NCBI GenBank assembly: GCA_900555955.1
Contig: USNA01000061.1
Span: 1-6,186, forward strand
Source: an uncultured Collinsella sp.
GTDB taxonomy: Bacteria; Actinomycetota; Coriobacteriia; Coriobacteriales; Coriobacteriaceae
Direction of reading: 5' to 3'
Length of the DNA stretch: 6,186 nucleotides
Shown: one piece after another, positions 1-6,186 of the stretch
How the letters are laid out: each line of letters opens with the position of its first letter
Position numbering within the stretch: position 1 is the first letter of the stretch
Position numbers and translations under genes: made by a program
The notes under the pieces: generated by a model
Told to the model about the DNA's origin: nothing
The model's database searches: none
The model's input: only the letters and a program-made list of their open reading frames with translations

Positions 1-1044
1 GTCCGCCCGCACGGTAGCGCTGCCGCGATTCGCCGCGGGCCGGCGCTTTCGCGGAGCACCCGTACGGGCGAAAGGTTCAAGGCGCGCCGCGAGTTCATTT
101 GCCGAAGGACGAGCATCTTGCGATACCGCAAGACAAGCCATAATCGCGTTGACCAAGCCCTGCTCGCGGGGAGTTGTGGGCGAAAGGGGTTGCGGCTGCA
201 CGGTGCGCTTGAGGCGCGCGTGATCTCCAGAGCGCCTGAGCTCCGCCTCAAAGGGGGCGCGTCCGCAATAAAGCTCGTAGAGGATGCTTCCCAGCGCATA
301 GATGTCGACGGCGGGATTGTCGCGCGCACTGGAGTCGGCCTTAAAGCGCTCCAGCATTTCGGGTGCCGCGTATGCCGGCGTGGCACCGCGAAAAGCGTTG
401 ACGTCGACGGTAAAGGAAAAGTCCGGTTTAACGAGCTTGGCACTGCCCATATCGATCAGGCAGATGTCAAAATAGCCACTCGACACCTGCTCCTCGAGCG
501 GGATGCGATCGTGACGCAGCATGATGTTGCGCATGGAGAGGTCGCGGTGAACAAAGGGCGTGTCGAGCGATTGCGTGGACAAGATGATCTTGAGTACGCT
601 CAGGCCCAGCGCGGCAACGATATCACCGGGGCAGGTTGCAGCGCCATCACTCAGAGCTGGTCGTGCATCAAGAAGCGAGACGCCGTCAACCCATTCCATA
701 AGCAGCGCCGGGGTTCCGTCTGCCGTGTAGCCAAAACCGTAGACATCGGGAAAACCCCTTAGGTTGGATACGACGGAGAGCGTGCGGTACTCCTCTTCCA
801 AAGTTTCTCGGTTGAGCTGTTCTTGCTCGGGTTGGGCATCGGGGCGCGGCATCTTAAGCGCGAGCTCAAAAGCGCGATCGCCGCTCTGGACGCGGCGGAC
901 ATAGGCGTTGCCGCCAAAGCCGCCCTTTTGCGGCGGAACGAGAAGCGTGCAGAAGCGACGCCGTGCCGCAGCCTGCTCGCGCTCGGTGAGCAGCGCTGGC
1001 GTATGAAACTTGACGAGTCGAACTTCTTCGTAAGAACCGGTCAT
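1..1044 (-). CDS. Eukaryotic-like protein kinase (Hanks type), 3' end cut by the window
   Basis: Reading leftward from the ATG at 1044-1042 gives 348 codons with no stop before the left edge, so the C-terminus is missing. The kinase fold is legible in order: Gly-rich loop GGFGGNAYV (residues 41-49), catalytic lysine K64 in ALKMP, acidic residues E80-E85 suitable for the helix-C salt bridge, catalytic loop HRDLSMRN (166-173), metal-binding DMG (198-200, replacing DFG), activation-segment ATPAYAAPEM (221-230), and DIYALGSILYEL (248-258). All ATP- and metal-binding residues are present, so it should be active. The P+1 region (TPAYAAPE) is of the Ser/Thr type, but the catalytic loop lacks the usual lysine. 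No membrane segment is seen up to residue 348, where a basic, Ala/Pro-rich tail begins; extracellular sensor domains could lie beyond the edge. It is transcribed divergently from the FHA/AAA+ operon and is the obvious writer for the FHA reader. Ribosome binding is weak (AAAGGA 12 nt upstream, or GAAAG 6 nt upstream). Confidence 0.93.
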   Translation of the reverse strand, partial: MTGSYEEVRLVKFHTPALLTEREQAAARRRFCTLLVPPQKGGFGGNAYVRRVQSGDRAFELALKMPRPDAQPEQEQLNRETLEEEYRTLSVVSNLRGFPDVYGFGYTADGTPALLMEWVDGVSLLDARPALSDGAATCPGDIVAALGLSVLKIILSTQSLDTPFVHRDLSMRNIMLRHDRIPLEEQVSSGYFDICLIDMGSAKLVKPDFSFTVDVNAFRGATPAYAAPEMLERFKADSSARDNPAVDIYALGSILYELYCGRAPFEAELRRSGDHARLKRTVQPQPLSPTTPREQGLVNAIMACLAVSQDARPSANELAARLEPFARTGAPRKRRPAANRGSATVRAD

Positions 1045-1095
1045 GGCGCGCTTTCATCCTTTCTTCCATTAGCAGGATATGCGCTTGCCGCCGCC

Positions 1096-1148
1096 TTCTG
1101 TTGCGCAACATCGACAAATCTGCCGCTCGCCAATGTTGCGCAACAGAA
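1096..1148. repeat. Paired 12-bp palindromes within a 16-bp inverted repeat, probable operator
   Basis: The perfect palindrome TGTTGCGCAACA occurs twice, at 1099-1110 and 1134-1145. The surrounding 16 bases are also symmetric: 1096-1111 (TTCTGTTGCGCAACAT) is the exact reverse complement of 1133-1148, with a 21-bp spacer. Centre-to-centre spacing is 35 bp, a little over three helical turns, which suits two dimers bound on nearly the same DNA face or a looped tetramer. Position between divergent genes argues for a shared transcription-factor site. The regulator family is not identifiable from the motif alone, and none is encoded in the window. Confidence 0.75.
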
Positions 1149-1208
1149 TCGCGCAAGACGGCGGTAGAAAGATGTAGGAAAGACGCAAGGACCAAGCTGG
1201 TCAAAAAC

Positions 1209-1214
1209 GGAGGG
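1209..1214 (+). promoter_or_regulatory. Ribosome binding site that fixes the start of the 499-aa gene
   Basis: GGAGGG lies 9 nt upstream of the ATG at 1224. The frame stays open upstream to a TTG at 1101, but that TTG sits inside the left palindrome and has no Shine-Dalgarno sequence, so the ATG at 1224 is preferred. Confidence 0.8.
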
Positions 1215-1223
1215 ATAGCAAGT

Positions 1224-2723
1224 ATGAGCGCCGTGGTTGGGATGTTTACATCTGTTGGCCCTGCGGCAAGTAGCGCCGCATCTACTGGGACAAGCTTGGG
1301 TGCTGCCGGCGCTGTTGGTATGGTCCTTTTGGCTCCTACCGCAATTGTTACGGGTGCGTTGGCTGCCCGTGAGACGGCGGAAAAAAATGCAAGTTATGCT
1401 GCCAAAGAGGAATTCAATGAGACTCTCGCGGACCTTAGGAAACGGATTGATGAGATAGCTTCCGGGCTGGATGAATCAACACGGGCAATGTTGGATGAGT
1501 TGATCACCAATTGTTCTCGCTCCTTTTATGCCGAACATGAAGAAAACACGATGAGTCTTGGTAGGGATACAAGGGTGAGGATGGAGAAGGCGTTGGCTCA
1601 TTTGCTTTCAACGCTTCACGTCCTGTTTCCACAAATGACTTTTGACGCTCATCTGAAGCAGAGGATGGAGATGAGCAAAAGTCAGATTGATGCTGCTTTG
1701 ACCGTTGAAAAGCTGAGAGCAGAAGGTCTTGCTAGGGCGATTGATTTTGATGTAACGCCTGATAATCCTATAGATCTGAAGAGGGCATTGCTTCAGATAA
1801 CCGCGGCGGCGGAGTCTTCTTCGGGCGTTGAAACGTTTGAGGGGGCGGCGCAATCATTTGACGCGTGGTCGGAAGTCGCCATCTCTTTGATGCAGGATGA
1901 AGCCTTGGATATGGCGCTGCGTAATCGAATAAGCGCGAAATTCGAATCGATCCGCGCCGTCTATGATGCGCTTGATTCCGATTCAACTGTTGAGGAGCTG
2001 CTTGCTATTAATAAGAGCATCAAGGATTTCGATCATGTCATGAAGCGCGCCCAGTATGAGTCTGCCGAGAAGCATGAGCAGTACACGCAGTACCAGATTC
2101 GAGTAGAGCTACTCAACGATCGATACCATCGCCCGACTGTTCTCAAGCACATTTATGAAATCGATAATATCTACGAAGAAATCGAAATCGCCGATGCCGA
2201 GCTTGATAAGGCCGTAAAAGACGAGTATATCGAGCGTGCAATTAATGATGCTATGACGGAACGTGGCGTCAATGTGGTCCGTTATGCCGTTATGGATGGC
2301 TCGGGCAAACCCTGGCGTCTTATGTTTGACACAAACGAACACAAAGCGGTCGCCGTCCTTAAGGGTAGCAGCGAACAGCAGGTCATCATGCGTGTCGTAG
2401 AGGCTGACCCAGCTGAGTTTTCTGAAGACCCGAATAATCCCACGATTATCAAAGACATGAAGATCCAGGATCAGTCAACCGTCGATAAGGCCGTTCAGGA
2501 CCAAGTGGAGTTTTGTGACTTCTATAAGCAGTTCAGTGAAGACCTTAAGAAGCGCGGCGTCTTTGCGGACACCTCGGCTGGTTTTGTGCGGCCGCCAAGT
2601 CCGGATGCTGCAGTCGAGATTCACCCGCACGATTACGTGCCGCCCACACCTTCCGCAGATGCGGAACGTCGTCTGCGTAATCGCCGTCAAGCAAGTCAAC
2701 TCAAGCAGAGGGAAATGAGGTAA
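1224..2723 (+). CDS. Helical protein of unknown function with N-terminal hydrophobic segment
   Basis: The product is 499 aa. I do not recognise a family. Residues 1-25 are small and Ser/Ala/Gly-rich. Residues 26-48 form a Gly/Ala-rich hydrophobic stretch (GAAGAVGMVLLAPTAIVTGALAA) that could be a membrane or hairpin insertion segment; it has no positively charged n-region or signal-peptidase site typical of secretion. From about 50 to 345 the chain is highly charged and predicted mostly helical, with coiled-coil-like stretches around 60-90, 255-300 and 315-345. Residues 350-395 look like a short beta-rich module (VVRYAVMDGSGKPWRLMF, then HKAVAVLKG and QVIMRVVEA). The tail (455-499) is proline-containing and ends in a strongly basic segment (ERRLRNRRQ). 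It leads the operon and its stop is 3 nt before the FHA gene, so it is probably a partner or client of the FHA/AAA+ proteins. Sampled lines are about 42-43% GC against roughly 60% or more next door, hinting at a separate origin or faster divergence. Confidence 0.9.
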   Translation: MSAVVGMFTSVGPAASSAASTGTSLGAAGAVGMVLLAPTAIVTGALAARETAEKNASYAAKEEFNETLADLRKRIDEIASGLDESTRAMLDELITNCSRSFYAEHEENTMSLGRDTRVRMEKALAHLLSTLHVLFPQMTFDAHLKQRMEMSKSQIDAALTVEKLRAEGLARAIDFDVTPDNPIDLKRALLQITAAAESSSGVETFEGAAQSFDAWSEVAISLMQDEALDMALRNRISAKFESIRAVYDALDSDSTVEELLAINKSIKDFDHVMKRAQYESAEKHEQYTQYQIRVELLNDRYHRPTVLKHIYEIDNIYEEIEIADAELDKAVKDEYIERAINDAMTERGVNVVRYAVMDGSGKPWRLMFDTNEHKAVAVLKGSSEQQVIMRVVEADPAEFSEDPNNPTIIKDMKIQDQSTVDKAVQDQVEFCDFYKQFSEDLKKRGVFADTSAGFVRPPSPDAAVEIHPHDYVPPTPSADAERRLRNRRQASQLKQREMR

Positions 2724-2726
2724 ACC

Positions 2727-3743
2727 ATGACATGGGAATGCCCTATCTGTGGTCTTATGAACGATGATGCCCGCGATATGTGCGAGGACTGTGGGACGCC
2801 GCGTCCCGCTGGTGCGGCCCCCGCGCCTTCGGCCCCTGCGCCCGCGGTCTCGGCACCCGAGGCGCCAGTCGCCTCTGCGTCCGGCTTTGCCGCCGCGGTC
2901 GCTGAGCGTCCGGCTCCCGCCGTCTACCCTGCAACATCATCGATGGACAGTGCTTCGCGGCCTCAGCGTCCCGCACCCCAGCAGGCACATCAGGCTGCTC
3001 CTGCTCCCACGCCGCAGCCTACCCCCATGCCCGTTCCGCAACCTGCTCCGGTTCCTGCGCCGCAGCCGACGCCTGCGCCGATGCCACGGCCGACGCCTGC
3101 GCCAATGCCGCAGCCCGCGCCGCAACCCATGGCGAATGCTGCAACTACTCCCGCGGCTCCCGCGCTTACGCTTGCCGATCCAGTAATGGGTGAGCAGCTT
3201 CGTCTCACGGACGCTGCCGTGCTTGGACGCAACGCGTTTCCTTCTATGGCTTCGAACTTTGCCATGTCCCGGCAGCATGCCAGCGTTCGTTTTGAGCGGG
3301 GCACATGGATGGTTGCCGATGAGGGGTCCAATAACGGAACGGCTCTTATGCGTGGCGGCCAGATCCTCAACTTGGTTCCCGGCGTGGCCCAGCCGATTCA
3401 TACCGGCGATACGCTACTCATTCCGGCTGCGTCTGGCGAGTTTGCCCAATTGCGTCTGACGGTTACTGTGGAGGAACCGCCTGCGGCGCAACCCGTGCAG
3501 ACCCAGGCTTGGTCTGCGCCTCAGCCCGCGTCTGCTGCGGCACCGGTTGTTTCTGCTGCTGGTGAGTCTGCGGGTGTCGAGGGCTGGTTTGTCGAGTGCC
3601 CCGAGTGCGGTCGTTTGCATCTCGTTGCTGATGAGCGCGCAAAGGTTGGGGATGGCTGTGAGGAATGCGGTTGCTCGCTTGCACGTACCTCGGCCGTGTA
3701 CCGTACACTCGATCCGGGCGAGGATTACGCCGATGTTCGTTAG
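2727..3743 (+). CDS. FHA-domain adaptor with RanBP2-type zinc finger and C-terminal zinc ribbon
   Basis: The product is 338 aa. FHA domains bind phosphothreonine peptides. Residues 3-22 fit the RanBP2-type zinc finger pattern exactly: W3, C5-x2-C8, x3, N12, x6, C19-x2-C22. Residues 28-146 are a disordered Ala/Pro linker with octapeptide repeats. The FHA domain spans about 147-248 and keeps the ligand-binding residues: G167-R168, S181-R182-x-H184 and the SNNGT loop (201-205). A second Ala/Pro linker (250-285) leads to a zinc ribbon at 291-314 (CPEC, 16 residues, CEEC). There is no membrane segment, so it should be a cytoplasmic scaffold. The start at 2727 is preceded by GAGG (2717-2720), 6 nt upstream. 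The 3' end overlaps the radical SAM gene by 11 nt. The natural writer is the divergent kinase at 1-1044; which operon protein carries the phosphothreonine is unknown. Confidence 0.93.
   Translation: MTWECPICGLMNDDARDMCEDCGTPRPAGAAPAPSAPAPAVSAPEAPVASASGFAAAVAERPAPAVYPATSSMDSASRPQRPAPQQAHQAAPAPTPQPTPMPVPQPAPVPAPQPTPAPMPRPTPAPMPQPAPQPMANAATTPAAPALTLADPVMGEQLRLTDAAVLGRNAFPSMASNFAMSRQHASVRFERGTWMVADEGSNNGTALMRGGQILNLVPGVAQPIHTGDTLLIPAASGEFAQLRLTVTVEEPPAAQPVQTQAWSAPQPASAAAPVVSAAGESAGVEGWFVECPECGRLHLVADERAKVGDGCEECGCSLARTSAVYRTLDPGEDYADVR
3018..3113 (+). repeat. Four 24-bp repeats encoding Pro-rich octapeptides
   Basis: Within the FHA gene linker (residues 98-129) the octapeptide recurs as PTPMPVPQ, PAPVPAPQ, PTPAPMPR and PTPAPMPQ. 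The last two DNA units (3066-3089 and 3090-3113) match at 21 of 24 positions, indicating recent tandem duplication; the first two are diverged. The peptide is an extended polyproline-type spacer. Confidence 0.85.
3720..3724 (+). promoter_or_regulatory. Ribosome binding site of the radical SAM gene inside the FHA gene
   Basis: GAGGA ends 8 nt before the ATG at 3733 and lies within the last codons of the FHA gene. It supports the ATG at 3733 over the in-frame upstream ATGs (from 3547), which would add about 60 residues out of frame with the FHA gene and unlike any radical SAM N-terminus. Confidence 0.75.
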
Positions 3744-4329
3744 CCATGTGCTTGCCCCCGTCGTCTCGCTGGGTCCGGGAGAACGTATTGTTGTCTGGAC
3801 CGCTGGTTGTTCAAAGCGTTGTGCCGGATGTATTTCGCCCCAATGGCGCGGCCAGTCGCCCGATCAAGATGTCGATGTTGATGAGCTTGCGCAGATGTTG
3901 CTCGATACCGCGCGCGAGCACGGCGTACATCGGCTGACGGTTTCGGGTGGAGACCCGCTCGAGCAGGCATCAGAGCTCGTGAAGCTGCTGGCAACGATCC
4001 GTTGCGCTTACGATGACATTCTCGTTTACACCGGATTTACGCTCGAAGAGCTGCCGCAGGTGATCGGTGCGGATACGTGGGAGACACTCAAGCCCCTCAT
4101 CGATGTGCTGATTGACGGTCCGTACATAGACGAGCTTAACGTGCCCGACTGCGCGCTGCGCGGTTCGACTAACCAGCGCGTAATCTACCTGAGCGACCGC
4201 CCGCACGATGACTACGACCAGTATCTTCAACAGCCTCGTCAGCTTCAAAACTATGTCCAGGACGGCACGATTATCACCGTTGGTATTGCCGACCGCTACC
4301 ACCATGAATTTTCTGCCAAGGAGGTATAA
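3733..4329 (+). CDS. NrdG-like radical SAM activase
   Basis: The product is 198 aa. Radical SAM enzymes use a [4Fe-4S] cluster to cleave S-adenosylmethionine and make a 5'-deoxyadenosyl radical. The cluster motif CSKRCAGC gives C26-x3-C30-x2-C33, followed by ISPQW as in NrdG-type activases. Other family marks are SGGDPL (71-76, the SAM-binding GGDP), VYTGFTLEEL (98-107), VLIDGPYIDEL (125-135) and RGSTNQRVI (143-151). These match class III ribonucleotide reductase activating proteins, which are usually a little shorter (about 155-180 aa). NrdG normally sits next to the reductase NrdD; here it sits between an FHA gene and an AAA+ gene and no glycyl-radical enzyme is visible. I therefore do not give the nrdG symbol: it may be a housekeeping activase paralog recruited to a new target. 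Translation is probably coupled to the FHA gene (11-nt overlap). Confidence 0.88.
   Translation: MFVSHVLAPVVSLGPGERIVVWTAGCSKRCAGCISPQWRGQSPDQDVDVDELAQMLLDTAREHGVHRLTVSGGDPLEQASELVKLLATIRCAYDDILVYTGFTLEELPQVIGADTWETLKPLIDVLIDGPYIDELNVPDCALRGSTNQRVIYLSDRPHDDYDQYLQQPRQLQNYVQDGTIITVGIADRYHHEFSAKEV
4318..4325 (+). promoter_or_regulatory. Strong Shine-Dalgarno for the AAA+ gene
   Basis: AAGGAGGT, complementary to the 16S rRNA 3' end, lies 7 nt before the ATG at 4333. It overlaps the last codons of the radical SAM gene. It is the best ribosome binding site in the window and suggests the AAA+ protein is made in higher amount than its operon partners. Confidence 0.85.
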
Positions 4330-4332
4330 CAC

Positions 4333-6186
4333 ATGGCAACTGATTTCGAGCGCCAATCCTGGCAGCGCGAGATGCTCAACTTTAAAGGGGTGAAGAGCCT
4401 CTTTATCCTTGAGGGCAACGTGAATGACAAGTATCCCGATGTGGTTGACGGCGGCCTTCAGTTCTCGGAGCTCGCCGAGGTCGTGCGCGGCCTTTTTGAA
4501 GACGCCAATGGCTCAGTTGAGTACAACGTGGCATATTTCGATCCCATCCAGCTGTTTTCGAGCAGCATGGGCAACGTCGATTGCAAGCGCCTGGTGTCGC
4601 TGGCGCACGACGAGGCTTCCAAGAGCGACGACCGCATGATGGAGGCGAACGCCTGTATCGCCGATGGCCGCCAAGCATATGCCACCGAGCAGTCGAGCCT
4701 GCCATCATACGGCGAGGTTATCCGCTCAATGTTGCGCCTTAAATACAACGACAATCCCGATGGCGGCACCGAGGCCAAGCCGCTTTGCGTGATCGTCAAC
4801 ATGGCGTCGCGTCTGCTTGCCTCCTCGACCGGTCTTATGCCCGACGAGACGCAGTTTTTCCTTAATCTGTACCTTGGTGCTAGCAAAGCACGCCTTATTA
4901 ACCGCACGGCTGTCAACACGCTCATTCTGGTAACGGATAACGTGCGCAACCTGCCCGTGTGGTTTATCGAGGAGAACCCCTTCTTGCGCACCATCACGCT
5001 GCCGCATCCCGACCGCGACATGCGCGAAGCCTATATTCAGAGCAAGTTTGGCTTTGGTGAGGCGCTGTCCGATTCCGATGACCGCGCGGTGCGTCGCTTT
5101 ATCGATACCACCGACGGCATGAGCGTGAAGGAGCTCGAGGGCCTGCAGCGCATGTATCAGCGCGATATGCAAAACCCCGATGCTTCCATCGAGGCCATCC
5201 TTCCCAAGCTCGTCGACGTGTATAAGTACGGTTTTCGCGAGAACAAATGGCAGCAGATGTTCGAGAAGCTCGAAGAGGATCCCGAGGCAAAGATCAAACG
5301 CCGCGTGAAGGGCCAGGACGAAGCCGTTGAGAAGGCCGTCACCGTGCTCAAGCGCTCCGTTATGGGCCTTTCGGGCGCCACCCATTCGTCTGGTTCCAAG
5401 CCCAAAGGCGTCCTGTTTTTGAGCGGTCCCACCGGTACCGGTAAGACCGAGATCGTTAAGGCCATTACGGAGCTCCTCTTTGGCGACGAGCGCAGCATGC
5501 TGCGTTTTGATATGTCAGAGTACGGTGCCGAAAACTCCGACCAAAAGCTCTTTGGTGCTCCTCCGGGATACGTGGGCTATGCCGAGGGCGGTCAGCTGAC
5601 CAATGCGGTCAAGGCCAATCCGTTCTCGGTAGTTCTTTTCGACGAGATCGAGAAGGCCGCGCCCAGCATTATGGACAAGTTCCTGCAGATCCTCGAAGAT
5701 GGCCGCCTGACCGATGGCCAGGGTAATACCGTGTACTTCTCTGAGACGGTCATCTTCTTTACGAGCAACATCGGCTTTTCCAAAATTGAGATCGATGCCC
5801 AGGGCAACGAAGTGCGTAATACCATCGCGCCCAACACGCCCTATAACGAGATTTGCGAGCGCGTGCGCACCGAGATGGATCGCGAGTTTAAGCCCGAGTT
5901 CTTGGGCCGTATCGGCGACAACGTGGTGATCTTCAACTTTATCGACGATGCCGTGGCACTTCAGATCCTTAATTCCAAGATCGATGCCGTTAACCGCAAC
6001 GTGCATAAGGCACAGCCCGATATTACGGTTGAGGCGACCGACGCTGCCCGCGAGCTGCTGCACTCCATTGCCATGACGGATGCTGTCAAGGCTAAGGGCG
6101 GCCGCGGCATTGGCAACTTGGTGGAGAGCGGCTACCTTAACGGGCTTTCCGATTTTCTGTTTGAACACCGCGCCGAGTGGCGCGGC
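4333..6186 (+). CDS. Clp-type AAA+ ATPase with degenerate first AAA-like domain, 3' end cut
   Basis: 618 codons are visible and the frame is open at the right edge. Residues 328-618 are a ClpB/ClpC D2-like AAA+ module: entry motif RVKGQDEAV (324-332), Walker A GPTGTGKT (365-372, K371), FDMSEY (392-397), pore loop GYVGY (412-416, aromatic Y413), Walker B VVLFDEIEKA (433-442, D437/E438), sensor 1 TSN (477-479), arginine finger R526 in FLGRIGD, and sensor 2 R591 in GGRGIGN. All catalytic residues are present, so it should hydrolyse ATP and thread or remodel protein through a hexameric ring. Residues 15-300 resemble an AAA+ domain that has lost its P-loop: a Walker B-like strand PLCVIVNM (150-157), a sensor 1-like strand TLILVTDN (196-203), and a lid-like LPHPDRDMREAYI (223-235), but no GxxGxGK. 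No Clp N-terminal repeat and no ClpP-docking loop are seen, pointing to a disaggregase or remodeller and not a protease partner. It is the fourth gene of the operon, 3 nt after the radical SAM gene. Confidence 0.93.
   Translation, partial: MATDFERQSWQREMLNFKGVKSLFILEGNVNDKYPDVVDGGLQFSELAEVVRGLFEDANGSVEYNVAYFDPIQLFSSSMGNVDCKRLVSLAHDEASKSDDRMMEANACIADGRQAYATEQSSLPSYGEVIRSMLRLKYNDNPDGGTEAKPLCVIVNMASRLLASSTGLMPDETQFFLNLYLGASKARLINRTAVNTLILVTDNVRNLPVWFIEENPFLRTITLPHPDRDMREAYIQSKFGFGEALSDSDDRAVRRFIDTTDGMSVKELEGLQRMYQRDMQNPDASIEAILPKLVDVYKYGFRENKWQQMFEKLEEDPEAKIKRRVKGQDEAVEKAVTVLKRSVMGLSGATHSSGSKPKGVLFLSGPTGTGKTEIVKAITELLFGDERSMLRFDMSEYGAENSDQKLFGAPPGYVGYAEGGQLTNAVKANPFSVVLFDEIEKAAPSIMDKFLQILEDGRLTDGQGNTVYFSETVIFFTSNIGFSKIEIDAQGNEVRNTIAPNTPYNEICERVRTEMDREFKPEFLGRIGDNVVIFNFIDDAVALQILNSKIDAVNRNVHKAQPDITVEATDAARELLHSIAMTDAVKAKGGRGIGNLVESGYLNGLSDFLFEHRAEWRG

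What the first reader, a model, noticed from the sequence alone, without database searches (positions are those of the whole stretch)
1..6186. Possible undescribed phospho-signalling/remodelling system: kinase, helical protein, FHA adaptor, radical SAM, Clp-type AAA+
The five genes supply a writer (kinase), a reader (FHA with intact phosphothreonine residues), a protein-remodelling motor, a radical enzyme and an unknown helical protein. Four are packed into one operon with gaps of 3, -11 and 3 nt, and the kinase diverges from a shared, operator-bearing region. Kinase + FHA + Clp-type ATPase is the regulatory logic of type VI secretion, but no other secretion component is present and the radical SAM gene has no counterpart there. 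Joint function is inference; the domain calls and layout are seen directly.
Basis: partly seen in the sequence, partly recalled or inferred. Interest (0 to 1): 0.8.

Follow-up and report, generated by a model that had tools for sequence, protein, structure and literature searches.

The report
Phospho-switched unfoldase and radical-enzyme cassette
Five neighbouring bacterial genes (a protein kinase, a coiled-coil protein, an FHA adaptor, a radical enzyme and a protein-unfolding motor) recur together in distant bacteria and on mobile DNA, and they likely form a phosphorylation-switched defence machine of a kind not yet described.

Summary
The locus is longer than the window: a near-identical Coriobacteriia locus (L178; AAA+ 99.7%, kinase 97%) continues with a PP2C phosphatase, a second kinase whose tail repeats an ETVTV motif 12 times, and membrane proteins. 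Of 33 distinct loci collected through the AAA+, 11 carry FHA, rSAM and AAA+ (10 also a kinase), 9 a MkoA-like helicase arrangement, 3 a kinase-helicase-nuclease fusion; all 23 keep rSAM with AAA+. Nine have the AAA+ alone. A relative of the helical protein is present in 21 of the 23, though in the helicase type that kinship is weak. The AAA+ folds like ClpB/ClpC with a first ring lacking Walker A. The set is rare and found on plasmids or beside conjugation genes. Between window and L178 the helical gene drops to 37% DNA identity inside a 90-100% frame. Tests do not support T6SS, KKP or Mokosh membership. Best reading (inferred): a phospho-switched, mobile defence system; envelope signalling is the main rival. 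No activity was tested.

The parts
1..1044 (-). Ser/Thr kinase, N-terminal 348 of 415 aa; HRD, DxG and APE motifs present
   Evidence: Pkinase E 1e-17; full length and C-terminal TM stretch in L178
1045..1223 (.). Divergent intergenic region between the two transcription units
   Evidence: conserved with L178
1096..1148 (.). Inverted repeat, 16-nt arms 1096-1111 and 1133-1148, each with the palindrome TGTTGCGCAACA (1099-1110, 1134-1145); candidate operator
   Evidence: 7 exact sites in the G247 genome, 2 of them here
1224..2723 (+). HEL: coiled-coil protein, 499 aa, hydrophobic stretch at residues 24-48, C-terminal conserved domain with one invariant Cys (residue 431), near-invariant last 36 residues among six close relatives (31 of 36 columns)
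2727..3743 (+). FHA adaptor: N-terminal zinc-finger-like Cys pairs, Pro/Ala-rich linker, FHA domain, C-terminal Cys pairs
   Evidence: FHA E 1e-5; RanBP zinc finger 21.8 bits, under its cut-off of 27
3733..4329 (+). NrdG-like radical SAM enzyme, 198 aa, CxxxCxxC and GSxNQ
4333..5260 (+). AAA+ protein, first half: D1-like fold without Walker A
5284..6186 (+). AAA+ protein, second half (cut): Hsp100 D2-type ATPase with Walker A, Walker B, GYVG pore loop and Arg finger
   Evidence: AAA_2 E 3.5e-51

Best explanation
The window holds most of a conserved, patchily distributed gene cassette in which protein kinases and a PP2C phosphatase are predicted to switch an FHA adaptor on and off phosphothreonine-bearing kinase tails, and this would gate an Hsp100-type unfoldase that likely works with an NrdG-like radical SAM enzyme on a coiled-coil partner, probably as a mobile cell-defence system. 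Shown from sequence: the genes, their order and recurrence, the kept catalytic motifs, an unfoldase whose first ring lacks Walker A and whose second ring is intact, the 12-copy ETVTV tail of the second kinase in L178, and the strong divergence of the coiled-coil gene between two otherwise near-identical loci. Inferred: that the Thr repeats are phosphorylated and read by the FHA protein; that this recruits or releases the AAA+ and rSAM; that the rSAM acts on the coiled-coil protein (the stretch around its one invariant Cys is a candidate site); that the coiled-coil protein is the variable recognition part; and that the purpose is defence.
Against: No activity or phosphorylation was tested. Nine of 33 loci hold a related AAA+ without the other genes, one of them (L244) in the genome that also holds the L161 plasmid contig. 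Four of 11 tails show no Thr repeat and three are borderline; L007 has an FHA gene but no repeat. L161 PP2C is under the Pfam cut-off, and no PP2C was seen in L186, L247, L248, L007 and the cut L187. None of the five window proteins is a full member of a PADLOC family. No defence gene was found in L178 itself, whose neighbours are membrane proteins without clear domains. HEL-Phyp kinship is weak (E 0.0061) and Phyp-Rhyp is not seen (0.092). HEL was not found in viral contigs.
Confidence: 0.45

Rival explanations
1. An envelope-sensing phospho-relay: the membrane kinases sense cell-wall or surface state with the neighbouring membrane proteins, and the FHA/AAA+/rSAM set remodels envelope proteins; it is not a defence system.
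For: Both L178 kinases have predicted TM stretches and three of the four genes after them encode proteins with one TM stretch each; membrane or surface-type neighbours occur in other loci: 5-6 TM proteins in L184, an SH3_3 protein with TM stretches in L185, a zinc-ribbon TM protein in L186, DUF4407 in L007.
Against: Rare and on plasmids or beside conjugation genes; sister arrangements use helicases, PIN or MTES_1575 domains in place of the signalling arm; strong divergence of HEL.
Confidence: 0.3
2. A kinase-phosphatase toxin/antitoxin or prophage-control module like KKP, in which unchecked kinases are toxic and the phosphatase is the antidote; AAA+, rSAM and HEL are helpers.
For: Two kinases plus PP2C plus FHA occur together in L178 and L161; KKP is a kinase-kinase-phosphatase module with an FHA part that acts in lysogeny and defence (PMC11341870, passages).
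Against: FHA is a separate protein, the second kinase has 1176 aa, no cold-shock domain was found, and HEL/rSAM/AAA+ have no KKP counterpart in the passages seen; HEL was not found in viral contigs.
Confidence: 0.12
3. A stray regulatory module of a type VI secretion system.
For: Kinase, PP2C, FHA and a Clp-type ATPase are the T6SS threonine-phosphorylation parts (recalled; PMC3953482 and PMC5995506 in a listing).
Against: AAA+ scores 218 bits with TssH/ClpV against a cut-off of 885, over D2 only; FHA protein 13.5 bits with TagH against 120; no T6SS domain in the six downstream L178 genes.
Confidence: 0.02
4. A chance juxtaposition of unrelated genes.
For: Nine of 33 loci have a related AAA+ without the others.
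Against: The same kinds of genes recur in 11 of 33 distinct loci, with 3-nt gaps or overlaps in the window.
Confidence: 0.02

Closest known systems
Type VI secretion threonine-phosphorylation pathway (PpkA/PppA/Fha) with ClpV
   Same: Kinase, PP2C, FHA reader and a Clp-type ATPase; same control logic (recalled; listing)
   Different: No ClpV or TagH membership by score, no secretion genes in the L178 stretch; rSAM and HEL have no counterpart
KKP kinase-kinase-phosphatase module of Pf prophages (PMC11341870, passages)
   Same: Two kinases, a PP2C phosphatase and FHA involvement
   Different: There FHA and cold-shock domains are fused to kinases of 900-1300 bp; here FHA is separate, a kinase has 1176 aa, and HEL, rSAM and AAA+ are added
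Mokosh (MkoA/MkoB) and PADLOC candidate PDC-S37 / Hhe helicases
   Same: Sister arrangements of the rSAM-AAA+ pair carry a MkoA-like (340 bits, L163) or DUF4011-SF1-MTES_1575 helicase (PDC-S37 1308 bits beside L161)
   Different: No helicase seen in the window or in the 15 kb of L178; the rSAM-AAA+-HEL part is not in those models as far as PADLOC shows
ClpB/ClpC Hsp100 unfoldases
   Different: First ring without Walker A; far under the ClpB, ClpV and ClpA cut-offs
NrdG / glycyl-radical activases
   Same: Fer4_12 family, CxxxCxxC, best NCBIfam hit TIGR02491 at 93.8 bits
   Different: Under the equivalog cut-off of 126.1; no clear glycyl-radical partner in the 31 reference proteins scanned

Membership tests
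Type VI secretion system | TssH/ClpV ATPase | tested here: not met
   TIGR03345 218.3 bits, cut-off 884.95, residues 318-613 only
Type VI secretion system | TagH-type FHA protein | tested here: not met
   TIGR03354 13.5 bits, cut-off 120.25
Type VI secretion system | Sheath, tube and membrane-complex genes nearby | tested here: inconclusive
   None among the six downstream L178 genes by Pfam; the flank beyond the first kinase is unread
KKP | PP2C followed by two kinases of 900-1300 bp with fused FHA and cold-shock domains | tested here: not met
   Separate FHA gene, second kinase 1176 aa, no cold-shock domain; definition from passages
Mokosh | MkoA SF1 helicase | tested here: not met
   Only the kinase region matches MkoA (45 bits); no helicase domain in the L178 genes scanned
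Hsp100 unfoldase | D2 with Walker A, Walker B, aromatic pore loop, Arg finger | tested here: met
   9 of 9 relatives, fold match
Hsp100 unfoldase, class I (ClpA/ClpB/ClpC) | Two working ATPase rings | tested here: not met
   One Walker A only, in D2, in 9 of 9
NrdG equivalog | Score above the NCBIfam cut-off | tested here: not met
   93.8 against 126.1 bits
Radical SAM superfamily | CxxxCxxC cluster motif | tested here: met
   In the window and in 25 of 25 rSAM ORFs listed from the loci
Antiphage defence systems | Protects cells against phage or plasmid entry | not testable with these tools
   Needs a plaque or transformation assay
Antiphage defence systems | Match to a catalogued defence system | tested here: not met
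   PADLOC hits are partial: shared kinase or AAA domains; only neighbours in sister loci match candidates well

The most novel reading that the evidence does not exclude
A new mobile bacterial immune system built on a three-part core (a fast-changing coiled-coil sensor, an NrdG-like radical SAM enzyme and a half-dead Hsp100 unfoldase). A multivalent phosphothreonine tail with its own sequence code in each lineage is written by the kinases, read by the FHA adaptor and erased by PP2C, and fires the unfoldase-radical enzyme pair; sister lineages plug the same core into helicase-nuclease effectors instead.
Probability: 0.3. Interest if true: 0.9.

Novelty: categorically new. Interest (0 to 1): 0.7.

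Why it matters
If right, it would be the first case known to us of an Hsp100 unfoldase wired to a radical SAM enzyme, with a phosphothreonine array as the trigger and exchangeable control or effector arms across phyla. It would show Ser/Thr kinase-FHA circuits at work inside a machine outside type VI secretion and mycobacterial metabolism. The claim that it is undescribed rests on Pfam, NCBIfam, PADLOC 2023 and PHROGs and on eight full-text searches of an open-access library that listed no paper pairing these genes; subscription journals and preprints were not searched.

Tried and rejected
Own genome: none held, so the flank beyond the kinase could not be read; L178 ends 131 bp after the kinase stop. 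HEL fold: model too poor to search (mean pLDDT 58.3). HEL in viral contigs: 139 pattern matches, none confirmed. HEL comparisons with small alignments gave E 0.0027 for Rhyp but nothing for Phyp; the larger set gave 9.2e-5 for Rhyp and 0.0061 for Phyp, with Phyp-Rhyp still 0.092, so the type C partner is called related only weakly. A profile search with seven HEL relatives found two proteins. Glycyl-radical motif: two chance-like matches in the 31 reference proteins; there two HEL rows held alignment gaps, so HEL was rescanned without gaps: 2 of 15 HEL-type proteins hold a short match (L185, L186), the window's HEL none. HEL was likewise missed by the TM scan and rescanned. Palindrome as a regulon: 7 exact sites, 23 forward sites with up to one mismatch against one for the reversed control; neighbouring genes read by eye only, no regulator found. 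PMC7159879 (passages) describes MoxR-vWA and related systems, not this one; PMC10853773 and PMC12839542 (passages) hold no mention of FHA, PP2C or ClpA/ClpB. Of 80 genome loci I annotated the first eight (the long matches); of 20 plasmid records listed (2260 had some match, 8 over 80% of the query) I read six; the 80 viral loci and 24 were not followed.
Full report
WHAT IS THERE. The five genes exist as described. The kinase reads leftward from 1044; HEL (1224-2723), FHA (2727-3743), rSAM (3733-4329) and AAA+ (4333-6186, cut) read rightward with spacings of 3, -11 and 3 nt. The 179 bp between the units carry two copies of the perfect palindrome TGTTGCGCAACA inside fully complementary 16-nt arms. 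Of the five proteins only HEL has no family hit at E 0.001 in Pfam, NCBIfam, PADLOC or PHROGs when the libraries are taken together.

THE LOCUS IS LONGER THAN THE WINDOW. Among 396 Coriobacteriia genomes one (G247) has a strong HEL match; two others reach only E 1.4e-4 and 1e-3. Its 15-kb contig, L178, holds the same locus: kinase 97.1%, FHA 79.6%, rSAM 88.9%, AAA+ 99.7% identical in protein. It goes on with a PP2C phosphatase (PP2C_2 E 4e-9), a second kinase of 1176 aa (Pkinase E 7.5e-13) with six hydrophobic stretches, a 203-aa protein, and three proteins with one hydrophobic stretch each. One of 43 genomes of that genus has the AAA+.

IT IS A RECURRING SET. Loci with an AAA+ relative came from plasmids (six records read), from the eight long matches among 80 genome loci and from genome searches: 6 of 391 genomes of one class, 1 of 6, 3 of 51, 1 of 11 and 1 of 6 in four orders, 15 of 396 in a fifth order; genomes overlap between searches, and the large ones score only three candidates per genome, so these are lower bounds. 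Of 35 loci annotated with home-made profiles, 33 are distinct. Eleven hold FHA, rSAM and AAA+: L178 (Coriobacteriia), L161, L184, L185, L186, L238, L247, L248, L001 and L187 (the Clostridia searches, a Lachnospiraceae MAG and an Aristaeella plasmid) and L007 (Methylocaldum). FHA passes the Pfam cut-off in the ten scanned; in L178 it is 80% identical to the window's, which also passes. A kinase is present in nine of them clearly; L001 is cut inside a weak kinase match (17 bits) and L187 is cut before one could be seen. HEL is found by profile in seven (L178, L161, L184, L185, L186, L238, L247). PP2C passes Pfam in L178, L184, L185, L238 and L001, and falls under the cut-off in L161. The profiles were built partly from L161, L178, L184-L187 and L001, so L238, L247, L248 and L007 are the more independent cases. 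Gene order varies: HEL-FHA-rSAM-AAA-PP2C-kinase in L184 and L185, AAA-kinase-HEL-FHA-rSAM in L186, kinase-DUF4407-FHA-HEL-like-AAA-rSAM in L007.

SISTER ARRANGEMENTS. Nine loci read helicase - PIN or unnamed gene - Phyp - AAA - rSAM (L162-L164, L166, L188, L249-L252; PIN shown in L162-L164 and L166). Three read AAA - rSAM - kinase/DUF4011/SF1/MTES_1575 fusion - Rhyp (L005, L006, L165; fusion domains shown for L165). Nine hold the AAA+ without any other labelled gene (L002-L004, L239-L244). L008 stands apart. So rSAM with AAA+ is the most constant element.

HEL IS A SHARED PART. Its C-terminal stretch, with one Cys kept in 12 of 12 rows, matches Rhyp (E 9.2e-5), a 528-aa protein of L248 (4.2e-4), a 415-aa protein of L007 (0.0029) and, weakly, Phyp (0.0061; its own Cys kept in 10 of 10 rows). 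Rhyp and the L007 protein match at 2.9e-7. Comparisons of these with PP2C, rSAM, FHA or the AAA N-half gave 0.027 or worse, but so did several pairs among themselves (Phyp with Rhyp, L007 and L248; Rhyp with L248; L007 with L248). The fold model is helical, with low confidence in this part.

THE SWITCH. The second kinase of L178 starts with 12 copies of [G/D][E/Q]T[V/I]T[V/I] within residues 3-164. Other tails show other short Thr repeats: T[IVT][ILF]N in both kinases of L161, ETLRR in L248, T[ES][IVL]M in L238. A shuffle test gave p<0.01 in 4 of 11 tails (L178 KIN2 0.0002, L161b 0.0022, L248 0.0034, L247 0.0092, the last with only two Thr), 0.05-0.11 in three (L238, L178 kinase C-tail, L161a) and more in four (L184, L185, L186, L001). 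None of five comparison tails passed, though one (L007) comes from a locus with an FHA gene. Tail borders were chosen by eye after seeing the sequences, so the p-values are indicative. That such sites bind FHA when phosphorylated is inference; Fha binding to phosphothreonine of TssL in T6SS is the title claim of PMC3953482 (listing).

A FAST-CHANGING CENTRE. Window against L178, DNA identity in 100-bp steps is 91-100% over the kinase, 79% at 1101-1200, 37-39% over 1201-1500, rising to 83% at the end of HEL, 44-91% over FHA, 76-91% over rSAM, and 90-100% over the AAA+. HEL relatives have differing N-termini, while 31 of the last 36 columns are identical in six close relatives; that tail is not kept in the Clostridia relatives. 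This pattern fits a recognition part of a conflict system, but plain allele replacement would look the same.

SETTING. The Aristaeella locus lies on a plasmid, directly behind a DUF4011-SF1-MTES_1575 protein (PADLOC PDC-S37, 1308 bits). In L184 a TraG-type coupling gene ends 38 nt before HEL. Four of nine type C loci are on plasmids.

JUDGEMENT. The set is real and, by the libraries and papers searched, undescribed. It works like the T6SS phospho-switch but is not a member by the tests run. Defence is the most likely purpose, at somewhat under one in two; envelope signalling is the main rival.

Noticed in passing
window 1099-1110 and 1134-1145; G247 genome: The palindrome TGTTGCGCAACA occurs 7 times exactly in the related genome, two of them here; others lie beside genes that look like zinc-ribbon TM, surface and further kinase-type proteins, as if one unknown regulator served an envelope or signalling regulon.
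   Followed up: partly
L002-L004, L239-L244: A close AAA+ relative occurs without rSAM, FHA or HEL; in L004 it lies near CotH, VTC and PGA_cap genes. One genome (G1090) holds both this lone copy and the plasmid cassette.
   Followed up: partly
L162-L164, L166, L188, L249-L252: A MkoA-like helicase - PIN or unnamed gene - coiled-coil - AAA+ - rSAM arrangement, four of nine on plasmids; a candidate extended Mokosh-like system of its own.
   Followed up: partly
L005, L006, L165: A roughly 2,090-aa fusion of zinc-ribbon, kinase, DUF4011, SF1 helicase and MTES_1575 nuclease domains beside AAA+-rSAM (domains shown for L165).
   Followed up: no
L184:4079-7316: A ClpP protease gene two genes upstream of a TraG-type coupling gene, which in turn lies 38 nt before HEL.
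   Followed up: no
L178:1414-3014: The coiled-coil gene of L178 is split over two reading frames; a real break or an assembly error.
   Followed up: no
L186:1296-9390: Two further radical SAM proteins (372 and 459 aa), a prepilin-peptidase-like protein and MORN, DUF4236 and DUF5050 proteins precede the cassette on the same strand; DUF4236 also lies upstream in L161.
   Followed up: no
L178:12842-14839: Two related TM proteins whose sequences, read by eye, resemble EF-hand-type loops followed by leucine-rich-like repeats.
   Followed up: no
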